The position numbers and the translations under genes were made by a program. The notes under the pieces are model-generated. The model made no database searches, had not been told where the DNA came from, and saw nothing but the letters and a program-made list of their open reading frames with translations. A stretch of DNA of 64,000 bases from Halorhabdus tiamatea SARL4B. GTDB taxonomy: Archaea; Halobacteriota; Halobacteria; Halobacteriales; Haloarculaceae. Below are positions 12,343 to 26,397 of the stretch, piece by piece. The first letter of the stretch is position 1, and each line of letters starts with the position of its first letter. Location: contig NC_021921.1 in NCBI RefSeq assembly GCF_000470655.1, positions 1,674,001 through 1,738,000 on the forward strand, given 5' to 3'.

Positions 12343-12399
12343 AACAGTACTGTTCGTCAATTCATCGCTGATCCACACTGGGAATCTGGTCAAGGTGGA

Positions 12400-12683
12400 T
12401 CGTCATTAGCTCCTCAAATGCTGAATGCGAATCTAGTGATTAGAGTCCGTCTAGAACGCAAGTCCGTTGCGGCCCCCGCTTTCATGATACTCCGTCGCGG
12501 TGTAGAGGCCGGTGGACTGATTGTAACATTCTCCGGTGTTTCGTCAATTCCGTCAGCATTATCTGGATCTTCACTCCCCCCTGTAGACTTCGTAGGCGTG
12601 CTCGCCGACTAGTCCTCCGATAGTTGGGATCGGCGCGTCGTCCGCCCAGCCGATCGAAAGCGTATGACTCAATTCCAACATTT
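12400..12683 (-). pseudogene. Dead C-terminal metalloprotease cassette (cassette E)
   Basis: Fragments in several frames align with the C-terminal protease domain at 14933-16123. Reading on the minus strand: SHTLSIGWADDAPIPT and IGGLVGEHAYEVY, then (after a frame change) GIDETPENVTI and SIMKAG, then FEEL near 12410. The zinc motif has become LELSH instead of HELGH, so the catalytic His is lost, and stops and frameshifts interrupt it. It begins directly after the stop of the lipoprotein gene at 12684, keeping the alternating order. This is the most decayed cassette and the farthest from the main gene. Confidence 0.8.
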
Positions 12684-13217
12684 TCAATCCGTTGTTGTTG
12701 CATTCGGAGCGGTCTCCGTCGGCCCTAATCCATTTGGGAGGAACTCTGCTGGCGGGAGATTCTCATCGCATCGGCGAGGCCTCCCGTCCCAAACCCGACT
12801 GAAGTCATCGTTTTCCTTCGCTCGTTGATCTTTGGTCCCGGTCCAATAGAGCAAGGCGATACTCACGTTTTTATCGCAGACAGATTCGTCGGCTGTAGCT
12901 GTGATTACAAATGGGAACGCATCTGTGTGAAGAACGGTGGATCTTGTACCTCCTCCAGTGATGTTTCCTATACTGTGAGACCGGATCAGTTCCCCTCGGT
13001 GATCGTATAAGATCATCTCAATATTGTGGAATGTCGCGCCCCAGAAACCGTTTTTTATGGAAAGCTCTACTTCCCATTCGGAGTTTGATTTCTTGACAAA
13101 TGGATGGATGCTCAGCTCCCATTCTTTTCCAGGGGTCTCAACATCTCCATTGCTGAGACAACCGCCTCCGGCAACTAACAGACCGGACAACCACTGGAGG
13201 TAGTAACGACGATTCAT
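12684..13217 (-). CDS. Tat-type lipoprotein, candidate immunity/partner protein (LP-D)
   Basis: A 177-residue secreted lipoprotein beginning MNRRYYLQWLSGLLVAGGGC, a twin-arginine signal with a lipobox ending in Cys about residue 20. The mature part shares with LP-B and LP-C the motifs GKEW.LSI, TFHNIEMILYDHRGEL, a PFVITATA strand, ESVCDKNVSIALLYWTG, and a C-terminal RPRRCDENLPP. Two conserved Cys could form a disulfide. No function is known. The start is chosen at the signal peptide; it begins 1 nt after the stop of the decayed protease cassette (13219). The frame is fully intact although both flanking protease cassettes are broken. Confidence 0.8.
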   Translation of the reverse strand: MNRRYYLQWLSGLLVAGGGCLSNGDVETPGKEWELSIHPFVKKSNSEWEVELSIKNGFWGATFHNIEMILYDHRGELIRSHSIGNITGGGTRSTVLHTDAFPFVITATADESVCDKNVSIALLYWTGTKDQRAKENDDFSRVWDGRPRRCDENLPPAEFLPNGLGPTETAPNATTTD

Positions 13218-13218
13218 A

Positions 13219-13564
13219 TTAAGACTCGCGGGATGGGACTCCCTTGAGGTCAACTGTACTCAGTTCCTCGATACTAAAGTGTAGGAGTGGAATCGAGCCA
13301 GGATGACCGATATCGGTCGTATCGAACGCCGTTCCACGTTTCATGATACTCCACCACGGATAGGCAGAAGCAGTAATCCCTCGCTTGGGCAATGAGACGT
13401 TCTCGGGCGTGGGATCGATACTGCCGGCCCACTCTGGGTGGCCCATGTTCCCACTGTAGACTTCATACGCTTTCTGACCGACGAGATCGCCCAATCGGGA
13501 ATCTTCGTGTCGTCGTTCCAGCCGACAGAGAGCAATATGTTGTACATGCTCAACACACTTGCAC
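13219..13564 (-). pseudogene. Frameshifted C-terminal metalloprotease cassette (cassette D)
   Basis: The 3' part reads GDLVGQKAYEVYSGNMGHPEW, then GIDPTPENVSLP-like sequence, YPWWSIMKRGTAFDTT and LHFSIEELSTVDLKGVPSRES. The upstream part lies in another frame (ILLSVGWNDDTKIPDW), and where HELGHAFSIG is expected the sequence reads MYNILLSVG, so the HExxH zinc site is gone. Its N-terminal part is also missing; it starts just after the LP-C stop. The C-terminal end and the 1-nt spacing to LP-D are perfectly kept. Confidence 0.82.
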
Positions 13565-14062
13565 CTACCGCGCATCATTCTCAGCTGGGAGAAATTCTTT
13601 TGGGGGCAGCTCTTGATCACATTTTCGTCCGTCAAATACCCAGACATCTCTGGGATCGTCAAATTGATCACCCATCTGAGAACGATCCCCTTCCCAGTAG
13701 ACTAATCCGATATTTACGTGTTCATTACAGGGGGATTCCTTTGCTTTCGCTGTGATCAAATATGGGAACGCTTCAGTGCTGAGTGCGACAGTTTTCTCAC
13801 TGTCCACGGTCCCGACTTGCTGACTAATTAATTGTTCTCCCGACTTCCCAAAGAGGAGTATTTCGACATCGTGGAACGCAGATTCGAAAGAGTCGTTCTG
13901 GAGAGTGAGTTCTACTTCCCACGCTGAATCGTCAGCAAAAACATTGGGCCATATCATGAGATTCCACTGTTTTGCTGGCGTCTGCGTATTCGATGGCAAT
14001 ACACAGCCCGCCATCGGGAGAGATATGCAAAACAGACCACCGATTACCCGTCTGCGTCTCAT
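13565..14062 (-). CDS. Lipoprotein, candidate immunity/partner protein (LP-C)
   Basis: 165 residues, beginning MRRRRVIGGLFCISLPMAGC: basic N-terminus, short hydrophobic core and a lipobox (MAGC). The mature part resembles LP-B and LP-D: AKQWNLMIWP, AFHDVEILLFGKSGEQL, AFPYLITAKAKESPC, NEHVNIGLVYWEG, and RKCDQELPPKEFLP at the end. It begins 1 nt after the stop of protease cassette C (14064). Anchoring outside the membrane would put it where a secreted protease would act. Function inferred only from context. Confidence 0.8.
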   Translation of the reverse strand: MRRRRVIGGLFCISLPMAGCVLPSNTQTPAKQWNLMIWPNVFADDSAWEVELTLQNDSFESAFHDVEILLFGKSGEQLISQQVGTVDSEKTVALSTEAFPYLITAKAKESPCNEHVNIGLVYWEGDRSQMGDQFDDPRDVWVFDGRKCDQELPPKEFLPAENDAR

Positions 14063-14063
14063 A

Positions 14064-14423
14064 TTATGAGTTACGTGAGGGAATCTCTTCGAAGTCAACT
14101 GTACTCAATTCCTCAATGCTAAAGTGTAATAGTGGGAATTGGTCCGGATGGCCAATTCTCCCGCTGTCGAACGCTTCTCCTCGCTTCATCACACTCCACC
14201 AGGGATACGTGGGGGTTGGGGTTGGATTCGGCAACGAGACGTTCTCGGGCGTGGGATCGATACCGCCGGCCCACTCCGGGTGGCCCAGGTTCCCACTGTA
14301 GACTTCGTAGGCGTGTTCGCCGACCAGTCCTCCGATCGTGGGGATCGGCGCGTCGTCCGCCCAGCCGATCGAGACCGCGTGACCGAGTTCGTGCATCCCT
14401 CGTTGCGTTTCACTCAGTACCAT
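14064..14423 (-). CDS. Truncated C-terminal metalloprotease cassette with intact HELGH (cassette C)
   Basis: 119 residues, containing MHELGHAVSIGWADD (zinc motif), EHAYEVYSG, GIDPTPENVSLP, the Met-turn-like YPWWSVMKRG and the conserved end LHFSIEELSTVDFEEIPS. Relative to cassette B it has lost about 275 N-terminal residues, so it lacks most of the domain and any signal peptide. Its possible start (14423) overlaps the end of LP-B by 14 nt. It may be a translated remnant or a reservoir sequence that becomes functional only when recombined onto the main gene. Confidence 0.65.
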   Translation of the reverse strand: MVLSETQRGMHELGHAVSIGWADDAPIPTIGGLVGEHAYEVYSGNLGHPEWAGGIDPTPENVSLPNPTPTPTYPWWSVMKRGEAFDSGRIGHPDQFPLLHFSIEELSTVDFEEIPSRNS

Positions 14424-14931
14424 TGTCTAATTTTGTCGTGGCGTCGTCTGGTAGTAGCTGTTCTGGCGGCAGTTCCTCATCACAGCGACGGGGCCGCCCT
14501 TCCCAGACGCGTTCGAACTCGACGGATCCCTCTCCGCGCTGCTCACTTGTCCCATTCCAATAGGTCAGACCGATATGTACGTTCTCGTCACATGGAGACT
14601 CTCGAGCCCTTGCTGTAATGATATATGGGAATTGTTCCGTTTCGAGAGTTACATCTATCGTTCCAGAAAGACTCCCTATCGAGGAAGACTGCAGCAAGTC
14701 CCCATTTTCGTCGTACACTACTATTTCTAAATCATGAAATGTTATATCCCATCCAATCTCGCTTACGACTCGAATAGTTGTCCTAAAACCGTCACTAGTT
14801 CGACTCATGTCCTCCGGTAAAATACTGAGTCTCCATTCTTTCTCCGGCGTTTCATCGTCTCTATTAGTAACACAACCCGCAGTAAAGGTCACTGGTATAA
14901 TGAACCACGTGAGTACTTCACGACGTAACAT
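14410..14931 (-). CDS. Lipoprotein, candidate immunity/partner protein (LP-B)
   Basis: 173 residues, starting MLRREVLTWFIIPVTFTAGC (signal plus lipobox TAGC). The mature domain has EKEWRLSI, TFHDLEIVVYDENGDLL, QFPYIITARARESPC, DENVHIGLTYWNG and RPRRCDEELPPEQLLP, the motif set shared by the downstream lipoproteins. It starts 1 nt after the stop of cassette B (14933), the same spacing as in the other cassettes, suggesting translational coupling. No enzyme motif is seen. Confidence 0.82.
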   Translation of the reverse strand: MLRREVLTWFIIPVTFTAGCVTNRDDETPEKEWRLSILPEDMSRTSDGFRTTIRVVSEIGWDITFHDLEIVVYDENGDLLQSSSIGSLSGTIDVTLETEQFPYIITARARESPCDENVHIGLTYWNGTSEQRGEGSVEFERVWEGRPRRCDEELPPEQLLPDDATTKLDNGTE

Positions 14932-14932
14932 A

Positions 14933-16123
14933 TCAATCTTCTTTTGAAGGGATCGCTTCGAAGTCAACCGTACTCAATTCTTCTAGGCTGAAATGTAATA
15001 CTGGGATCTCGCCTGGATGTCTCACACCAGTGGTATCGAATGCCGGGCCGAATTTCATCAGACTCCACCATGGATACGTGGGTGACGCAACTGACGAGTT
15101 CGGCAACGAAACGTTCTCGGGCGTCGGATCGATACCGCCTGCCCGATTTGGCATGCCGATGTTCCCACTGTAGACTTCGTAGGCGTGCTCGCCGACCAGT
15201 CCTCCGATCGTGGGGATCGGCGCATCGTCCGCCCAGCCGATCGAAAACGCGTGGCCCAGTTCGTGCATTCCAACGGATTGGAGTCCGTGGAAGTCATTCT
15301 TGGAGAAGTCATCTCGTGCGATCATGATCCCGAAGCCGGTCTCGTAAGGCAACTGGTTGACGAGGGGGCCGTCCGGCGAACCGACGTGCATCGCCATGCC
15401 GGTGGCACCACTGAGAGACGTTCGTTCATCGATTTCCGAACTGGGCTCGTCCGGTTGATCGCCCAGTGACGTTCCCCAGAGCATGTGCAACGCGTCCGTA
15501 TCGTTGTGGTACTCATCTTCGATCTTCCCGAGTTCCCATCTGTTGAGTTGGCTGGGATCGGTTTGGTTCATGGGAATATCCTCGGGGTCATAAATCCGTG
15601 TGCCCGGATCAGGTAGATATCCTGGATACTGGAACGTGATGTCCTCTCGGGTGAGTTCGTCGCTTTCGACGAACTCCAGATCAACCCCATACAGAGCGTA
15701 GTTCCGTTCGATCGCTTCGATGAGCGCCACGTTGTTCGTGTTGTTAATCTCGAACGGCGAGCCGTTCGCGGGCCAACTCTCGTTTCGGACGTAATCGACT
15801 TCGACCGTCAATTGGGTCTGTGCTTCGGGGGTTGATGCCTCGCTAGTCGGATCCGTATCCCAGTGCAATTCGCCGACGTGGACGTTCGAGTGATACTTCG
15901 GCCCGTTGTCGGTCAGCTGTGCACCCGGATCGTCGTCATCCACCTCGTGAATACCAACCTGCTCGTCGACGCGTTCGTCAGCACCGCTAGTGCCGTTGCC
16001 CGACTGTAAGTGCTCCCGATAGAGGATCACGTTGTCCGAATACCCGACACCGTGAACGCCGACCAGCCATTCATGGACCATCACTGTCAAAATATACATG
16101 AACACCCTGGCAGGCATCTTCAA
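14933..16123 (-). CDS. Orphan C-terminal metalloprotease-like cassette (cassette B)
   Basis: 396 residues and no convincing signal peptide. From about residue 18 it aligns with the C-terminus of the 1477-residue protein at 16685-21118: GVHGVGYSDNVILYREHLQ, SNVHVGELHWDTDP, NYALYGVDLEFVE, the zinc motif HELGHAFSIGWADD (287-300), EVYSGN, the Met-turn-like WWSLMKFG (352-359) and FSLEELSTVDF (378-388). Homology starts exactly where the TSP3 repeats of the main protein end, so this is a stand-alone effector domain. ATG 16081 is an alternative start. An LP-A gene precedes it and LP-B follows. Confidence 0.8.
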   Translation of the reverse strand: MKMPARVFMYILTVMVHEWLVGVHGVGYSDNVILYREHLQSGNGTSGADERVDEQVGIHEVDDDDPGAQLTDNGPKYHSNVHVGELHWDTDPTSEASTPEAQTQLTVEVDYVRNESWPANGSPFEINNTNNVALIEAIERNYALYGVDLEFVESDELTREDITFQYPGYLPDPGTRIYDPEDIPMNQTDPSQLNRWELGKIEDEYHNDTDALHMLWGTSLGDQPDEPSSEIDERTSLSGATGMAMHVGSPDGPLVNQLPYETGFGIMIARDDFSKNDFHGLQSVGMHELGHAFSIGWADDAPIPTIGGLVGEHAYEVYSGNIGMPNRAGGIDPTPENVSLPNSSVASPTYPWWSLMKFGPAFDTTGVRHPGEIPVLHFSLEELSTVDFEAIPSKED

Positions 16124-16163: not shown

Positions 16164-16688
16164 TCACATGCATTTCCCAGTCTCGTTGTGCCGTGGATAG
16201 GGGAACGGCGGATCGAGTTCTTCTAGTGGGCCCACAGTATAGGCGTATACCTGAGATTCGTTCTGCCAAACCCCAACATTCTGGTATATTTGGCCATACG
16301 TTCTGAATCGAGGATGGTCGATGACAATATATTTTGGAATAGATTGTGAACGAATAGACACTGTTTCGTGGTCGGTCGGTGTTTCGAAATCCCCGACGAT
16401 GGTCGAATTGAGAACCGTTCCGTTCAAACCGTACAAGCACAACGTGACGTCGTGAAAGGTAGTGGGCTTGAGAGACTGATTTGGCGGCGCTTTGAAGCGA
16501 ACTGTCCCGCGGTAGTAGAAGCCGGACTCGTTCGCATAATACGCTTCGATATCACCAAATCGGACATGCCCATCGACGGGTCCATCTTCGGTACCTGTTG
16601 TTGTAGTATTCGCGGTTTCTAGGGTACTGCATCCGGAAAATACACCACTTGTGATCAGTAGGATCACTATTGCAATTGTTTTCCTCAT
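16164..16688 (-). CDS. Lipoprotein paired with the main secreted protein (LP-A)
   Basis: 174 residues, beginning MRKTIAIVILLITSGVFSGC, a classical lipoprotein signal (lipobox FSGC). It keeps the TFHDVTLCLYGLNGTVL motif of the other lipoproteins but is otherwise divergent, for example in its C-terminal half around YQNVGVW and ELDPPFPYPRHNETGKCM. Its ATG overlaps the stop of the 1477-residue gene (ATGA, 16685-16688), so the two are almost certainly co-translated. This pairing of a specific C-terminal domain with a specific lipoprotein is the basis for suggesting immunity or inhibition. Confidence 0.82.
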   Translation of the reverse strand: MRKTIAIVILLITSGVFSGCSTLETANTTTTGTEDGPVDGHVRFGDIEAYYANESGFYYRGTVRFKAPPNQSLKPTTFHDVTLCLYGLNGTVLNSTIVGDFETPTDHETVSIRSQSIPKYIVIDHPRFRTYGQIYQNVGVWQNESQVYAYTVGPLEELDPPFPYPRHNETGKCM

Positions 16689-19600
16689 CGGTTTGTCGAA
16701 TTTGTAGAGACTGTGAACAGTTCCTCGATGCTGAATCCTGTGTACGTTGTATTTGTTGGCGGAAGGAATATCCATGTTGAATGTCCACCACTCATCACAC
16801 TCCATTCCTCTTTTGCTTGACCAAATCTATCGTAGACCTGCTCTGTAGTCGAATCTCTCCTTCCGCCACTATACACTTCTGTCCAGCAACAGTCGTCGTC
16901 GGCTTCGCCAGTCCGAAGGTGGTGGCCGATCTCGTGGACGGCAGTCTTCGTGGTGAGAACGCGCAAGCGTTCGCTCCGGTTGAGCGAGAACCGCGAGGGG
17001 ACATCGCTCGGATTGTGCTCGTCAGTAAAGACGGCCAGCCAATGGGTATGCGTGCGATTACCTGAATGCCTGCGGACGCCACCGCCATACCGGGTGAGAG
17101 GACCGGTAGAATCGGGGCCAACGGCCATGTAAACGGCATCAGTTTGATGGAACTCATCGGACAGGTGATAAATATTTGACCTATTCCATGGTGGCGAATG
17201 ATCGTAATAGGTGTGGCTACTCACTGGCCCGATTGTCGTCGTATCGTACCCTTCTAAATCGTCGTTGGTGACAGTATCCATATAGCGATCTTCGACGAAA
17301 TCGATATTTATGCCATACAGCGCGTAGTTATCACTGATTGCTTCTCGCCACTCTTCGGATCGAACTGACTCCGGGACATCCTCGTGATAGTCGACTTCGA
17401 TGCGGACCGTCGGGTCGGGCGTCTCGGCGGCTGACCCGTCGTTCGGATCGGTTCCCCACTGCAACTCGCCGACGTGAACGTTCGAATGGTCCGGCGTCCC
17501 GTCGCCATTGATGTCGGTACTGAGAGCCGAGGGGGCCGCTGAAGCGTTGTGGAAATCAACCTGTTGTTGAACGATTTCGTCGCCAGTGACGCCACCACCG
17601 TTTTGGAGGTTCTCCCGATACAGGATCACGTTATCCGAGTAGTTGACCCCATAGACGCCGATCCAGCCGTCCCAGTAGCCGTCATCGTCCGTGTCAGGAT
17701 CCAATGGATCAGTATCGACCGACTCGTCTCGAGCAAGGGTCTGTCGATTGCCTTCGGTCAGATACCGTGCTTCCTGGCCGTCCGTGAGTCCATCGTCGTC
17801 GGTGTCGGGATCCCACGGATCCGTCCCGGTGGCGATCTCATCGCCGTTCGAGAAGAACGTATCCGAACGCGTCGTCCCATCTAAAGCGATAAATAGCAAC
17901 CGCTCTCTGGCTTCCCGAGGCCCTAATCGATCATCCGATTCGAGGGGGATCGACCCGTTCGTGACGAAATCAAAATCCGCAGTCTTGTCCGTGTACGCCT
18001 CCTCGAGGGGCAACCCGACGTTGTGCTTTGCCGCCGAGGACGAGCCGTACCCGTCCTCGATCAATCGCTCGACACCACCCGCTATTCCATACGTCACGGG
18101 ATCCCGTGGATCCGTATGCGTCTCTTCTTTCTCTTCGGCATCCGTCAGTCCGTCGCCGTCCGTATCTTTCAGCATGGGATTGGACGTGACGGTGATATTA
18201 GCGTCCGGATTCTCCTCGACACTGCCGGCCCACCGGTAGGGCTGGCCGCTCTCGTTGATCACCGAGATGTTCCAGCCGTCGGCCTCCGAGTTGTTGTCCA
18301 GAGAGACTTCCTCGTGATCCTCGAGACCATCACCGTCCGAATCGGCGAGCGTCGGATTGGATCGTAGCTCGAAGTACGAGACGATGTACTCGTGCTCGAG
18401 GTCGTTGACGACGAAGTCGATCGGGTATTCTCTGTACTCCTCGGCCTCTTCGCCGTCCGCGAGTTCGTCGCCGTCAGTGTGCTTGTCGGTCGCATTGGTC
18501 GGAAGCCGGCGGAGATCCGAGCCAGTGTGACCAATCGGCAGTCCGTTTTCTTCGAGGACATCCGGCAGTCCGTCGCCGTCGGTGTCTTTCGGCTCGACCT
18601 CTTCGGCGACCCGCGAGAAGACGTTCGGCAAGTCCGAGGCGTCGTCGACGTAATTGTACGTCCCATTGGTGATCGATGCGATATCCGAGAGTTTGTTCCC
18701 GTCGGCACCGCCGAACCCAATCGTGTGGATCGTGATATTCCGGTCGGCAGCCGTCCGTGCCTGAGCCCGGCCGCCCGAGCCCTGGCCGTCGGTCAACAGG
18801 ATCGCGACCTTCGCTCGCGTGTTGTTGCTCGCACTCGCGAAGTGCTGGTTTGCCCGCGCGACGCCCGCGCCAATGTTCGTTCCACCGGCGGCGTCGAGGT
18901 TCTCGATCGTGACGTTGACCGCCCCGAAGTCCGTCGTCAACTGTTGGGCAACGTGGGCGTCGCCGTCGAAGTCAACGACGCCCGCCCGGTCGCCTGGAAC
19001 GAGTGCGCCGACGAACTCTTTGGCCGCTTGCTTACGGAATTCCTGGGGATCGTTCCAGCCCATCGATCCTGAGGAGTCGATGATGAACTGGACGTCCACG
19101 GACTGGATCGTCTCCTCGCCGCCCGTCCCGTTCGACGGTCGCTCGGCGGTGACGTCGGTCGCCCAGTTCGAAATCGAGAAGACGGCAAAGGTCGAGAAGT
19201 GCTCTGTTTCGGCCGTCACTGTGTTGTTCTCGGCGTCGATCGTCGAGTTGATCGGGACGTAGAGTTGTTTCTCGGGGTCGTACGTGACGACTGCCAGATC
19301 CGACTCGTTGCTTGCGGCCGGCAGCGAATCGTCGTAGGAGATGGTGACGTTCGCCGATTCGAAGTCCTCCGTGGATTCGATCTCGACGATCTCCGAGACA
19401 CTCATGTTCTCGACGCGGTCGCCCCCTGCGAAGCGCTCGGTCTCCTCGCCGACGGACACACCACCAGCCACGTTCCCCTCGCCAGTCAACTCGACATCGA
19501 CGCCCAGACTCTCGTTGCCCGCCGTCGTCGTATACGTCTCGTTGCCGTCTTCGATACCGTCGTCGTCGGTGTCCGGATCGAGCGGATCCGTCTCGAACGG

Positions 19601-21118
19601 GTCGGTCGGTTCGACGCCATCGTCGAGGCCGTCGTCGTCAGTGTCGGCCTGCCACGGATCCGTCCCGTTGGCGAGTTCCTGGGGATCAGTCAGCCCGTCA
19701 CCGTCGATGTCGGCATACTGGGGCGACGTCTCAGCGTCGTATTCCTCGGCGTTGGTCAAGCCATCGCCGTCGAGGTCCTCCTCGCCGTCAGGTGTACCGT
19801 CATCTGTGTCGGCGTCGAGTGGATCCGTCCCGATCACGAACTCCTCGAAGCCATCAGGTAGATCGTCACCGTCTGTATCAGCTTCGAGTGGATCCGTCCC
19901 GAGTTCCCGTTCTCGGATCGTCGACAACCCATCTCCGTCGAAGTCCTCGTTGCCGTCGGTCGTGCCATTGTTGGCCTCGTTCACCTCGGTCGACGGTGCA
20001 TCGCTATCGGGATCCAGCGGATCCGTGCCCGTTACGTTCGCTTCGTAGGTGTCCGGGAGGCCATCACCGTCCAGGCGAAGCACCACCCTGCTCGCCTGGC
20101 TCTGCCCGGATGACGCATCACTGTTGCCGTTGTTTCTCTTCTTCTTGCCCTTCTGCTTGCCGTTGTTCGACTGCTGACCGTCGTCACTTTCGACAGCAGT
20201 GATTTCGATCGTGTTTACACGCTCGGAGAGGTTGATCGTTTTCGCGAAGGTTCCGTTGGCGTAGCCACGGCGAAGTGGGAGGTCGACTGTGCGGTCTTCG
20301 TTGACCGTCGCGGTCACGTTCACGGCGTCCAGCCCGGTCGGGTTCGTCACATTCCCAACCAACGTATACTGTGCCCGCTCGCTTCCATTGCGGATCGGAT
20401 CCGCTCGCCGGGTGAGCGTCACCTCCGGACCGACCTCGCCATCGATCATTCGCAAGACAGTGTGGGCCTGGTTGACCGCCTGGCCGTACGTCCGGACGGC
20501 CCGTGCGGTCGTCCGAATCGACTGCGCGCCCGATTGCTCGCCAGCGCGATCGCGGATCCGCTCGGCGCGGGCGAGTTGCCGCCGAGCATTGTCGATGTGC
20601 GCTTCGACACTGTTGGTCTTTCCTGGGCCGAGGTCCGTTTCAGTCGCTGCGAAGGCATACTCGGCATCGCGGATGACTTGCCGAGCCGAGCGGTTGTCTG
20701 CTGTCGTCACTAATTCGACGATCTGGTCGAGTCGCTTGCTCTGATTCGTCCCGTCGAAGTCAGTCAGCGCTCGGAGCACTTCTGCATCGCGAATGAACGC
20801 GTGCTGGTCACCGATCCGTGTCGGATCCTGGTAAAACGCAAAGGAATCGTTCAGTCGCGAGCGAGCCCGTTCCTTAGCCGACTCGAGTTGGTTCGACGAG
20901 GCCGAGAAGTTCTCGATTCGCTCCATGGCCTGGGCTTTCAATATCACCGGCGGCCCGTCGGTCGGCTCCTCGAGCGCTGTCTCTCCATCCGACGGCGCAT
21001 TCCCGGCGTTCTGTGCGGCCGTGTCGGCAGCCACTACTCCCGCCGGTAGCATCGAGATGACCATCAAAAGCGATGCGACGATTGCGAATAGTTGCCCCCA
21101 TCCACCATTTAAGGACAT
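16685..21118 (-). CDS. Secreted TSP3-repeat/VWA protein with C-terminal metalloprotease-like domain
   Basis: 1477 residues. Order: signal peptide (about 1-31), helical region (60-230), calcium-binding TSP3-type DxDxDG repeats (about 349-525), a beta-rich segment (540-650), a VWA domain (about 673-840) with MIDAS residues DSSGS (681-685), T747 and D777, more TSP3 repeats (845-1150), then a 327-residue metalloprotease-like domain with HEIGHHLRTGEADD (1395-1408), EVYSGG and EWSVM. The Ca-binding rod and VWA suggest surface attachment or delivery. The start at 21118 is preferred over 21172 because a TATA-like TTATTTTAA lies about 26 bp upstream. Bases encoding the C-terminal domain are visibly AT-richer than those encoding the rest. 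Confidence 0.88.
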   Translation of the reverse strand: MSLNGGWGQLFAIVASLLMVISMLPAGVVAADTAAQNAGNAPSDGETALEEPTDGPPVILKAQAMERIENFSASSNQLESAKERARSRLNDSFAFYQDPTRIGDQHAFIRDAEVLRALTDFDGTNQSKRLDQIVELVTTADNRSARQVIRDAEYAFAATETDLGPGKTNSVEAHIDNARRQLARAERIRDRAGEQSGAQSIRTTARAVRTYGQAVNQAHTVLRMIDGEVGPEVTLTRRADPIRNGSERAQYTLVGNVTNPTGLDAVNVTATVNEDRTVDLPLRRGYANGTFAKTINLSERVNTIEITAVESDDGQQSNNGKQKGKKKRNNGNSDASSGQSQASRVVLRLDGDGLPDTYEANVTGTDPLDPDSDAPSTEVNEANNGTTDGNEDFDGDGLSTIRERELGTDPLEADTDGDDLPDGFEEFVIGTDPLDADTDDGTPDGEEDLDGDGLTNAEEYDAETSPQYADIDGDGLTDPQELANGTDPWQADTDDDGLDDGVEPTDPFETDPLDPDTDDDGIEDGNETYTTTAGNESLGVDVELTGEGNVAGGVSVGEETERFAGGDRVENMSVSEIVEIESTEDFESANVTISYDDSLPAASNESDLAVVTYDPEKQLYVPINSTIDAENNTVTAETEHFSTFAVFSISNWATDVTAERPSNGTGGEETIQSVDVQFIIDSSGSMGWNDPQEFRKQAAKEFVGALVPGDRAGVVDFDGDAHVAQQLTTDFGAVNVTIENLDAAGGTNIGAGVARANQHFASASNNTRAKVAILLTDGQGSGGRAQARTAADRNITIHTIGFGGADGNKLSDIASITNGTYNYVDDASDLPNVFSRVAEEVEPKDTDGDGLPDVLEENGLPIGHTGSDLRRLPTNATDKHTDGDELADGEEAEEYREYPIDFVVNDLEHEYIVSYFELRSNPTLADSDGDGLEDHEEVSLDNNSEADGWNISVINESGQPYRWAGSVEENPDANITVTSNPMLKDTDGDGLTDAEEKEETHTDPRDPVTYGIAGGVERLIEDGYGSSSAAKHNVGLPLEEAYTDKTADFDFVTNGSIPLESDDRLGPREARERLLFIALDGTTRSDTFFSNGDEIATGTDPWDPDTDDDGLTDGQEARYLTEGNRQTLARDESVDTDPLDPDTDDDGYWDGWIGVYGVNYSDNVILYRENLQNGGGVTGDEIVQQQVDFHNASAAPSALSTDINGDGTPDHSNVHVGELQWGTDPNDGSAAETPDPTVRIEVDYHEDVPESVRSEEWREAISDNYALYGINIDFVEDRYMDTVTNDDLEGYDTTTIGPVSSHTYYDHSPPWNRSNIYHLSDEFHQTDAVYMAVGPDSTGPLTRYGGGVRRHSGNRTHTHWLAVFTDEHNPSDVPSRFSLNRSERLRVLTTKTAVHEIGHHLRTGEADDDCCWTEVYSGGRRDSTTEQVYDRFGQAKEEWSVMSGGHSTWIFLPPTNTTYTGFSIEELFTVSTNSTNR

Positions 21119-21142
21119 ATCTGCTGGAATTGCATACCGGGT

Positions 21143-21151
21143 TAAAATAAT
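21143..21151 (-). promoter_or_regulatory. TATA box of the 1477-residue secreted protein gene
   Basis: On the minus strand the sequence reads ATTATTTTA, centred about 29 bp upstream of ATG 21118, predicting a leaderless transcript. No other good promoter is seen inside the downstream cassette array, so this may drive the whole array. Confidence 0.45.
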
Positions 21152-21455
21152 TTCTGGTAGATAACTTTCCACATTGATACCTACGACGCGATCACTGTCA
21201 ATTACGACAGCATCACGTCGCCACGCCTGTTGGACAAACTCGGCTGCCGTCGTGCTTCAAAAGTGACTGACAAGCAGGAACTCGTAGGGGCCAAAATGCG
21301 GAATCTCTCCTGATCAGGCGGATCGGGACGCTGTCTCTGCACGTGGCCCCTCCATCACAGGGTATGAAATAACGCCCGGGGTATCGTTCCGACGACGCCC
21401 GGTGGTCCAACGGTGACTCGTGGAAAGCCGACAGTCCGGGGCCCATAGCGAGTCC
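21152..21455. other. Intergenic region upstream of the TrmB-like gene
   Basis: No gene is supported in this roughly 300-bp stretch. Open frames on both strands are Arg/Ser-rich shadows. At 21459-21467, just beyond it, ACCCTTATTT resembles a TATA box for the gene starting at 21492. Confidence 0.4.
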
Positions 21456-25018: not shown

Positions 25019-26397
25019 CTCAGTCGATCACATTGACAGCCGCGTAATCTCGTCAGATGACGCTAAATCAGATCGAACTGGTCGTGGAACATCTTCGAGG
25101 CGCTGGTGAGCGTGATCTTCGGGATGGACCGTCGCTGTCGGCGGCGGATTGCCGCCGACGCGACAGCGTCGCCACTCACGACGGCTGTCCGGATCGGTGG
25201 ACAGCTACCGGAAGAACCGGTCGTCGAGTGGCTGGTTCGCTGGAACTGCCCTGCGCACACCAAGCGCTGTCCAGGCTGCCCGCAGCACCATCTCGCAGAA
25301 CTCAGTGAACGACCACTGCCAGAGGCGGCGCCCCCCGCGGCGGGGCGCCGCCACGTACCTCCAGTGGAGATACCGCCAGCTGTTCTGGAGCAGCAGGCTC
25401 ACGACAAACATCACCAGCCGTAGACCAGCGTCCTGAGAGCTGGTGAATGCGAGGCTCTGCTTGGCTAAGCGGTAACTCGACTCGATGCCGAAGCGCTTGC
25501 TGTAATGCTCTCGGGCATCCCGCGGCGTGTCGATAAACGGCGCGTCAGCGGCGTAGCCGTGACGCGCCACCCCGTGTTCGTCGTATCGGCCCTGCTGGTA
25601 GACGCAGTCGATGAACACGGGAAAGGTCACCTCGCCAACGAGATCGTGTTCGATCTCGCGGCTCCAGCCCCTGCTGAGTTCGTTTTGAATCGTCTCGCCC
25701 CACTTGACGATCGGCATCACGTAGGCGTAGTTGTGTGCGTACAGCAGTCCGAGACAGGTGCTGTTGTAGAATCCGTGATCGAGGTAGACGGCCTTGACGC
25801 CGAGGTCAAGGCCGTCAAGGAGTTCGAGGAACTCAGCGAGGACATCGCTGGTGGTGTCGCCAGCGACAAGCTGGCGCACCGCCAGTGTGTACCGCTTGTT
25901 GCGTACCCGCGCGTAGAGAGTCGCATACGCGTGAAACGTCGTTGTACCCCGCTTCGCCTCCGAGAAGTACAGCGCTTCTGTCTCGTCTTCGTCGCCGTAG
26001 TAGGGATCGAGGTGGAGGTCTGCGCAGACCTCCACCGGTCGATCTGGGAGTGTCTCAAGTGCATCTCGCTGCAAGAGCGTGTCTCCAACTACCTCAACAG
26101 TGTCAAGGTCGAACTGATCGGTGAGATGTCCCCGGACAGTGTTGGCGTGCGGTGAGTCGTCTGTCGTTTCGCAGACGTGGTTGATCGAGGTCCCGCCGGC
26201 GCTGGCGCCGGCGAGGACCTCATACAGCTTCTCCGTGGTGACTTCGACGTTTTCGCCGAGATCTATCGCAAGCTCCTCGTCAAGGCTGTTGACGACAAAA
26301 TTAAGCAGGTGCTCTTCCTCTATCTCGTTGTCTGCTTCGGGTTCTTGCACATCCTCCCAAAGCAGACACTTCCTCTAACCCGATGTGATCGACTGAG
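25019..26397 (-). mobile_element. ISH3-family insertion sequence
   Basis: A complete-looking element of about 1.38 kb, the size expected for ISH3-type elements. Its ends carry a perfect 15-bp inverted repeat: CTCAGTCGATCACAT at 25019-25033 and its complement at 26383-26397. One transposase gene fills it. The 5 bp outside each end do not match, so the target-site duplication is absent or my end assignment is off by a few bases. Confidence 0.85.
25205..26350 (-). CDS. ISH3 family transposase
   Basis: 381 residues, full length. Conserved ISH3-type blocks: HLLNFVVNSLDEELAIDLGE near the start, ADLHLDPYYGDEDETEALYF around residue 110, SEAKRGTTTFHAYATLYARV, KAVYLDHGFYNSTCL, YSKRFGIESSYRLAKQSLAF (the DDE-type C-terminal acidic residue) and VRRAVPANQPLDDRFFR at the end. 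No frameshift is visible, so the enzyme is probably active. It lies between 15-bp inverted repeats in a patch of older, broken IS remains. Confidence 0.95.
   Translation of the reverse strand: MQEPEADNEIEEEHLLNFVVNSLDEELAIDLGENVEVTTEKLYEVLAGASAGGTSINHVCETTDDSPHANTVRGHLTDQFDLDTVEVVGDTLLQRDALETLPDRPVEVCADLHLDPYYGDEDETEALYFSEAKRGTTTFHAYATLYARVRNKRYTLAVRQLVAGDTTSDVLAEFLELLDGLDLGVKAVYLDHGFYNSTCLGLLYAHNYAYVMPIVKWGETIQNELSRGWSREIEHDLVGEVTFPVFIDCVYQQGRYDEHGVARHGYAADAPFIDTPRDAREHYSKRFGIESSYRLAKQSLAFTSSQDAGLRLVMFVVSLLLQNSWRYLHWRYVAAPRRGGRRLWQWSFTEFCEMVLRAAWTALGVRRAVPANQPLDDRFFR

What the first reader, a model, noticed from the sequence alone, without database searches (positions are those of the whole stretch)
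12400..14931. Protease cassettes decay with distance while lipoprotein genes stay intact
B is full length. C lacks about 275 N-terminal residues but keeps HELGH. D is frameshifted and has lost HExxH (MYNILLSVG). E has multiple breaks and LELSH. In between, LP-B, LP-C and LP-D are all open, each with signal peptide, lipobox and conserved motifs. The asymmetry suggests selection keeps the lipoproteins (continued protection against relatives carrying those effectors) but not the old effectors.
Basis: partly seen in the sequence, partly recalled or inferred. Interest (0 to 1): 0.7.

Follow-up and report, generated by a model that had tools for sequence, protein, structure and literature searches.

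The report
Orphan protease-tip and lipoprotein gene array
A salt-loving archaeon carries a row of leftover pieces of a secreted protease-tipped protein, each followed by an intact small surface lipoprotein gene; the row looks like the spare toxin-and-antidote arrays of bacteria, with antidotes kept and most old toxin pieces no longer usable.

Summary
The asymmetry is real and general; "decay with distance" is only partly right. The window is Halorhabdus. Gene A (vWA/TSP3 stalk, HEIGH zincin tip) is followed by LP-A, B, LP-B, C, LP-C, D, LP-D and E. B has a whole tip but no signal peptide. C keeps HELGH but lacks the front half of the catalytic domain. D has lost HExxH and carries a +1/-1 frame shift. 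E has many stops. LP-A to LP-D are open. A colinear array in a sister genome shows LP-B and LP-D under purifying selection (dN/dS 0.18, 0.16); LP-C has 4 synonymous and 0 replacement changes. Dead tip remnants are also constrained (0.18-0.53). In the sister array the furthest tip keeps HExxH and nearer ones have lost it. Across 28 loci, 24 orphan pairs have an incomplete tip with an intact LP; one has the reverse. Truncated tips often start at the active-site motif, beside the preceding LP stop; that segment is homogenised within genomes, so much truncation looks like recombination, not decay. In 48 of 49 pairs the LP start lies within 16 nt of the tip stop. Best reading: an archaeal polymorphic-toxin-like system with an orphan tip/immunity array, lipoproteins probably being surface-anchored inhibitors. 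Function is untested.

The parts
16685..21172 (-). Gene A, main effector: signal region, TSP3-type repeats, vWA domain, stem, C-terminal HExxHxxxxGxxDD metalloprotease-like tip
   Evidence: ORF of 1495 aa; Pfam VWA 1.8e-21, TSP3_bac 6.1e-20, Zincin_1 0.016
16922..16936 (-). HEIGH active-site motif of the A tip
   Evidence: sequence; column conserved
16164..16688 (-). LP-A, lipoprotein (lipobox FSGC); start overlaps the A stop (ATGA)
14933..16123 (-). B, orphan tip: stem plus whole catalytic domain (HELGH 15251-15265), no stalk, no signal peptide
14410..14931 (-). LP-B, lipoprotein (lipobox TAGC); start 1 nt after the B stop
14064..14423 (-). C, orphan half-tip beginning at HELGH (14379-14393); ORF start overlaps the LP-B stop
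13565..14062 (-). LP-C, lipoprotein (lipobox MAGC); protein identical in the sister genome
13219..13671 (-). D, tip remnant without HExxH, compensated +1/-1 frame shift; open frame overlaps the LP-C end
12684..13217 (-). LP-D, lipoprotein (lipobox GGGC); start 1 nt after the D stop
12350..12681 (-). E, broken tip remnant (LELSH, many stops in the tip frame); its LP is absent here but present in the sister genome
14287..14393 (-). Segment HExxH to YEVYSG of C (with 15159-15265 of B and the equivalent part of E): homogenised within the genome, proposed crossover anchor
13306..14304 (-). Block about 98-99% identical to the sister genome (C 3' half, LP-C, most of D), flanked by 71-86% identity

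Best explanation
The region is the orphan-module tail of a haloarchaeal polymorphic-toxin-like system. Gene A is a secreted or surface protein with a constant vWA/TSP3 stalk and an exchangeable metalloprotease-like tip. Each small lipoprotein (a predicted beta-sandwich on a lipid anchor) is most likely the inhibitor, or immunity protein, of the tip encoded just before it, held on the outer face of the membrane where a secreted protease would strike. When a new tip-plus-lipoprotein unit recombines into the end of gene A, the old unit is pushed downstream. Two junctions recur. One lies in the stem and leaves a whole but unsecreted tip (B). The other lies at the active-site motif and leaves a half tip that can never act as a protease (C, D, E). 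The displaced lipoproteins stay expressed through a chain of overlapping stop and start codons and are kept by selection; the tip remnants lose activity. Shown: the arrangement, truncation points, gene-conversion pattern, constraint on LP-B and LP-D, and excess of intact LPs. Inferred: proteolytic activity, inhibition, surface location, order of events, translational coupling and protection against relatives.
For: Main genes of the same and sister genomes share N-terminal parts (84% within the genome, 59-76% in sisters) but carry different tips, and in two sister genomes quite unrelated C-termini. Each tip is followed by its own LP: 48 of 49 start within -14 to +16 nt of the tip stop, in several genera. 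LP divergence follows the protease domain (Mantel r 0.65 front half, 0.51 back half) more than the shared stem (0.23). LPs have a signal region plus lipobox or N-terminal TM and a confident beta-sandwich model (pLDDT about 94-98 over most of residues 31-160). dN/dS of LP-B and LP-D is 0.16-0.18. Discordant orphan pairs are 24:1. 13 of 32 truncated tips start at profile 253-269 (2.7e-8 under a uniform model; 4 of 13 lineages, p=0.007). HExxH-YSG DNA is 84-94% alike among B, C, E within the genome but 73-74% between B-B' and C-C' orthologs, while C 3' halves are 98% alike between genomes. In CDI systems orphan toxin fragments lack start signals, their immunity genes are expressed, and near-identical blocks run from one VENN motif to the next (PMC3150448).
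Against: No activity of tip or LP is known. Pfam and PDB sequence matches to the tip are weak and its AlphaFold model failed (pLDDT 37). The LP fold has no significant PDB match and no known immunity-family hit. Dead tips also show dN/dS below 1. In complete pairs LP variation follows the front half of the protease domain more than the back half, so a half tip may not be reusable with its LP. Some full tips have EExxH in place of HExxH yet keep their LP.
Confidence: 0.62

Rival explanations
1. The lipoproteins are accessory partners of the tip (folding, anchoring or activation), not inhibitors; orphan copies persist because they still serve the A tip.
For: LPs co-vary with the protease domain; membrane anchoring fits either role; start/stop overlap gives equal production.
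Against: Orphan LPs persist without a working cognate tip, including loci with runs of LPs and in a genome whose main gene is broken. LP-A is only about 20% identical to LP-B, so orphans are unlikely spares for the A tip.
Confidence: 0.15
2. No continuing selection on orphan LPs: they look intact because they are short, arrived recently by recombination, or are fragments of recently displaced functional units.
For: A block holding LP-C, part of C and the dead D is about 98-99% identical to the sister genome, above the 90% of one core gene, so LP-C intactness says little. Close pairs (1-2% divergence) have uninformative dN/dS.
Against: LP-B and LP-D have diverged 26% and 14% at DNA level with dN/dS 0.16-0.18 and no stop or frame shift. 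Broken LPs are found (G088, G091, G092) but are few.
Confidence: 0.13
3. The array is mainly a store of silent donor segments that vary the tip of gene A by gene conversion; LPs travel along.
For: Homogenised HExxH-YSG segment within each genome; several main genes in one genome with different tips.
Against: The A tip itself is not homogenised with B, C or E (45-55%). Most donors have lost HExxH or are open only in part. In complete pairs LPs follow the half of the domain that the truncated donors lack.
Confidence: 0.1

Closest known systems
CDI and Rhs orphan toxin/immunity modules (Poole et al. 2011, PMC3150448)
   Same: Long surface protein with exchangeable C-terminus, immunity gene behind it, downstream array of N-terminally cut tips each with its immunity gene, short conserved junction motif, near-identical blocks shared between strains.
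   Different: Archaeal; vWA/TSP3 stalk instead of haemagglutinin or Rhs repeats; no CdiB partner or VENN motif seen; tip is a metalloprotease-like domain; partner is a lipoprotein; junction lies at the active-site motif inside the toxin domain.
Archaeal polymorphic toxin systems (Makarova et al. 2019, cited in PMC8416519; paper not held)
   Same: Predicted in haloarchaea, large secreted multidomain protein first in a co-directed array with C-terminal paralogs and small partner genes.
   Different: PMC8416519 says nuclease tips are the commonest there; whether this metalloprotease/lipoprotein branch was described could not be checked.
VARTIG modules of Thermococcales (PMC8416519)
   Same: Hypervariable archaeal surface-protein array with partial copies downstream and membrane-anchored partners.
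   Different: VARTIG proteins have Ig domains and no recognised toxin; here the tip has a zincin motif and the partners have lipoboxes.
Orphan immunity arrays of Bacteroidales (AID/rAID; PMC12247911)
   Same: Immunity genes kept without a working cognate effector.
   Different: rAID has a tyrosine recombinase and conserved intergenic motifs, not seen here; its genes show positive selection at the interface, ours purifying selection overall.
Protease bacteriocins of Xanthomonas perforans (Bcn-C, PMC7259588)
   Same: Extracellular metalloprotease that inhibits relatives.
   Different: Stand-alone secreted M35-like protein without a polymorphic array.

Membership tests
Polymorphic toxin system | Constant N-terminal delivery part with exchangeable C-terminal domain | tested here: met
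   N-terminal parts 84% alike within the genome with different tips; two sister genomes join the same N-terminal part to unrelated C-termini
Polymorphic toxin system | Partner gene directly behind each tip, co-varying with it | tested here: met
   48 of 49 LP starts within -14 to +16 nt of the tip stop; Mantel r 0.51-0.65 with the protease domain against 0.23 with the stem
Polymorphic toxin system | Orphan tip/partner modules downstream | tested here: met
   about 50 orphan tips in 28 loci
Polymorphic toxin system | Tip is toxic and partner neutralises it | not testable with these tools
   no assay possible
CDI (CdiA/CdiI) | CdiB partner, VENN motif, haemagglutinin repeats | tested here: not met
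   Pfam on gene A gives VWA and TSP3 only; no VENN in the tips
Rhs | YD/Rhs repeats | tested here: not met
   no Rhs match in Pfam or NCBIfam
Metzincin/zincin metallopeptidase | HExxH with downstream third ligand and Met after it | tested here: inconclusive
   HExxHxxxxGxxDD and W[SP]xM conserved; Zincin_1 best E 5e-4; PDB E about 0.25 or more; model too poor
Known immunity families | Profile match | tested here: not met
   no Pfam or NCBIfam match for the window LPs; only stray single-member hits in the wider set
rAID | Recombinase and intergenic motif in the array | tested here: not met
   no recombinase ORF recognised among the ORFs between 12350 and 21172; genes overlap, so no intergenic motif

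The most novel reading that the evidence does not exclude
The exchange unit of this archaeal weapon is cut inside the catalytic domain, at the DNA encoding the zinc-binding motif, so every displaced tip of that class is dead on arrival while its lipoprotein antidote survives; the dead half-tips then persist as short open frames that carry ribosomes from one antidote gene to the next.
Probability: 0.3. Interest if true: 0.65.

Novelty: new variant of a known kind. Interest (0 to 1): 0.52.

Why it matters
Archaeal contact weapons are barely tested. This locus gives a compact model: a protease-like tip, small lipoprotein partners that look like surface antidotes, and a fossil record of past tips. 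It would let one ask whether archaea, like bacteria, hoard immunity genes against neighbours, and whether dead toxin pieces are kept only to keep antidote genes translated.

Tried and rejected
AlphaFold of the tip (12 sequences) failed (pLDDT 37), so no fold search was made with it. Fold search of LP-B in the PDB gave no match with E <= 0.001. Plasmid search with the array found nothing. My idea that the back half of the tip alone sets LP specificity was not supported: LP variation follows the front half better (partial r 0.47 against 0.07). Shine-Dalgarno differences between coupled and uncoupled LPs were not clear (mean match 3.1 and 2.5 nt). Parts of some relatives are withheld and read N, so their upstream genes could not be read. 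The 2019 survey of archaeal polymorphic toxins is not in the held library.

Full report
WHAT IS THERE. The window lies in a Halorhabdus genome: G003 of the same genus has a contig of the same length (548,300 bases) as one named Halorhabdus salina; the genome size suggests H. tiamatea, from memory. On the minus strand gene A (16685-21172, 1495 aa) has TSP3-type repeats, a vWA domain and a C-terminal tip with HEIGH. It is followed by LP-A, B, LP-B, C, LP-C, D, LP-D, E. All four LPs are open with signal region and lipobox. B contains stem and whole catalytic domain but no signal peptide or stalk. C begins at HELGH. D lacks HExxH. E has many stops. Alignment of 14 full tips shows invariant or near-invariant HExxH, G, DD, YSG, W[SP]xM and S.EE positions, a zincin-like pattern, with the catalytic domain starting well before HExxH. 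A tip cut at HExxH therefore lacks about half of its domain.

SISTER ARRAY. G005 (same genus) has a colinear array at another chromosomal place. Window 15263-12626 aligns with it over 2,658 bp at 85.6%, but as a mosaic: LP-B about 73%, a block from the middle of C through LP-C into D at about 98-99%, LP-D about 86%; one core gene (LysS-like) is 90%. In G005 B', C' and D' have lost HExxH and the last tip E' keeps HELNH and is followed by an intact anchored protein; in the window E is broken and that partner is absent. The G005 main gene has a stop or frame shift between signal peptide and stalk and lacks the vWA part, yet all five of its LPs are intact. Decay is thus not a simple function of distance.

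SELECTION. NG86 dN/dS between the two genomes: LP-B 0.18 (0.10-0.29), LP-D 0.16 (0.09-0.26), LP-C 4 synonymous and 0 non-synonymous; tips B 3' half 0.19 (0.09-0.34), C 0.53 (0.28-1.10), D 0.18 (0.04-0.54). Other genome pairs are mostly too close; a Halosimplex tip remnant without HExxH gives 0.30 (0.16-0.53). LPs are constrained, but so are some dead remnants. Constraint from the time before displacement and gene conversion can produce the latter.

SURVEY. Of 391 Halobacteria genomes sampled, 22 hold the tip; LP relatives were found in 21 of 23 genomes checked. HMM annotation of 28 loci plus the window gave 24 orphan pairs with incomplete tip and intact LP, 14 with both complete and intact, 1 with complete tip and LP not scored intact, and 11 with neither (sign test 1.5e-6, not corrected for shared ancestry; broken LPs are harder to detect than broken tips). 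One Halosimplex locus has at least six intact LPs with a single tip remnant.

RECOMBINATION. The HExxH-YSG segment is 94% (B-C), 85% (B-E) and 84% (C-E) alike within the window genome but only 73-74% between B-B' and C-C'; downstream of YSG the pattern reverses (C-C' 98%, B-C 70%). In 13 of 32 truncated tips the homology starts at profile 253-269, at or just before HExxH, usually 50 nt or less from the preceding LP stop, in at least four array lineages. Local profile alignments tend to start at conserved blocks, but the short distance to the LP stop is independent of that. I conclude that HExxH is a junction of module exchange, as VENN is in CDI (PMC3150448).

COUPLING. In 48 of 49 tip-LP pairs the LP start lies -14 to +16 nt from the tip stop, whole or remnant. 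In the window LP-B/C, LP-C/D and LP-D/E also overlap (-14, -11, -4), giving one near-continuous run of ORFs, the LP-A/B gap (about 40 nt) being the exception. Coupling itself is inferred.

LP STRUCTURE AND PAIRING. The LP-B model is a confident beta-sandwich without a significant PDB match. LP distances track the protease domain rather than the stem. This supports cognate pairing; immunity is the most economical role but is untested.

VERDICT. Observation partly confirmed, interpretation partly supported. It works like a polymorphic-toxin orphan array and meets its genomic criteria; toxin and immunity activities could not be tested.

Noticed in passing
L156 (G066), L158 (G038), L155 (G052), L147 9706-10776 (G092), L027 14145-14690 (G006): Tips in several genera have EExxH (MEEIGH type) in place of HExxH while the aligned ones keep the other motifs; three are leading main genes. 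Possibly inactive or differently liganded tips that still have an LP.
   Followed up: partly
L181 3548-7681, L183 2386-6408: Two sister Halorhabdus main genes share the stalk and a common later part but differ in roughly the last 80 residues and in the next gene, a tip swap of another type; weak PBECR3 nuclease-like match in one.
   Followed up: partly
L160 (G088, Halosimplex aquaticum contig): A run of at least six intact LP genes with only one tip remnant; no intact main tip of this family was found in the stretch.
   Followed up: no
G000:C2:1258112-1259338 (L185) and L026: The same genome holds further main genes and arrays, an N-terminal stalk orphan, and an array with a transposase-like ORF inside it.
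   Followed up: no
window 25131-26367: A stretch 72% identical to DNA that also lies near the G005 array (L022 2114-3371, transposase-like ORFs there); might have moved the array.
   Followed up: no
L147 8176-10779: In G092 an LP is in one open frame with the following stem and tip (about 870 aa), an LP-tip fusion.
   Followed up: no
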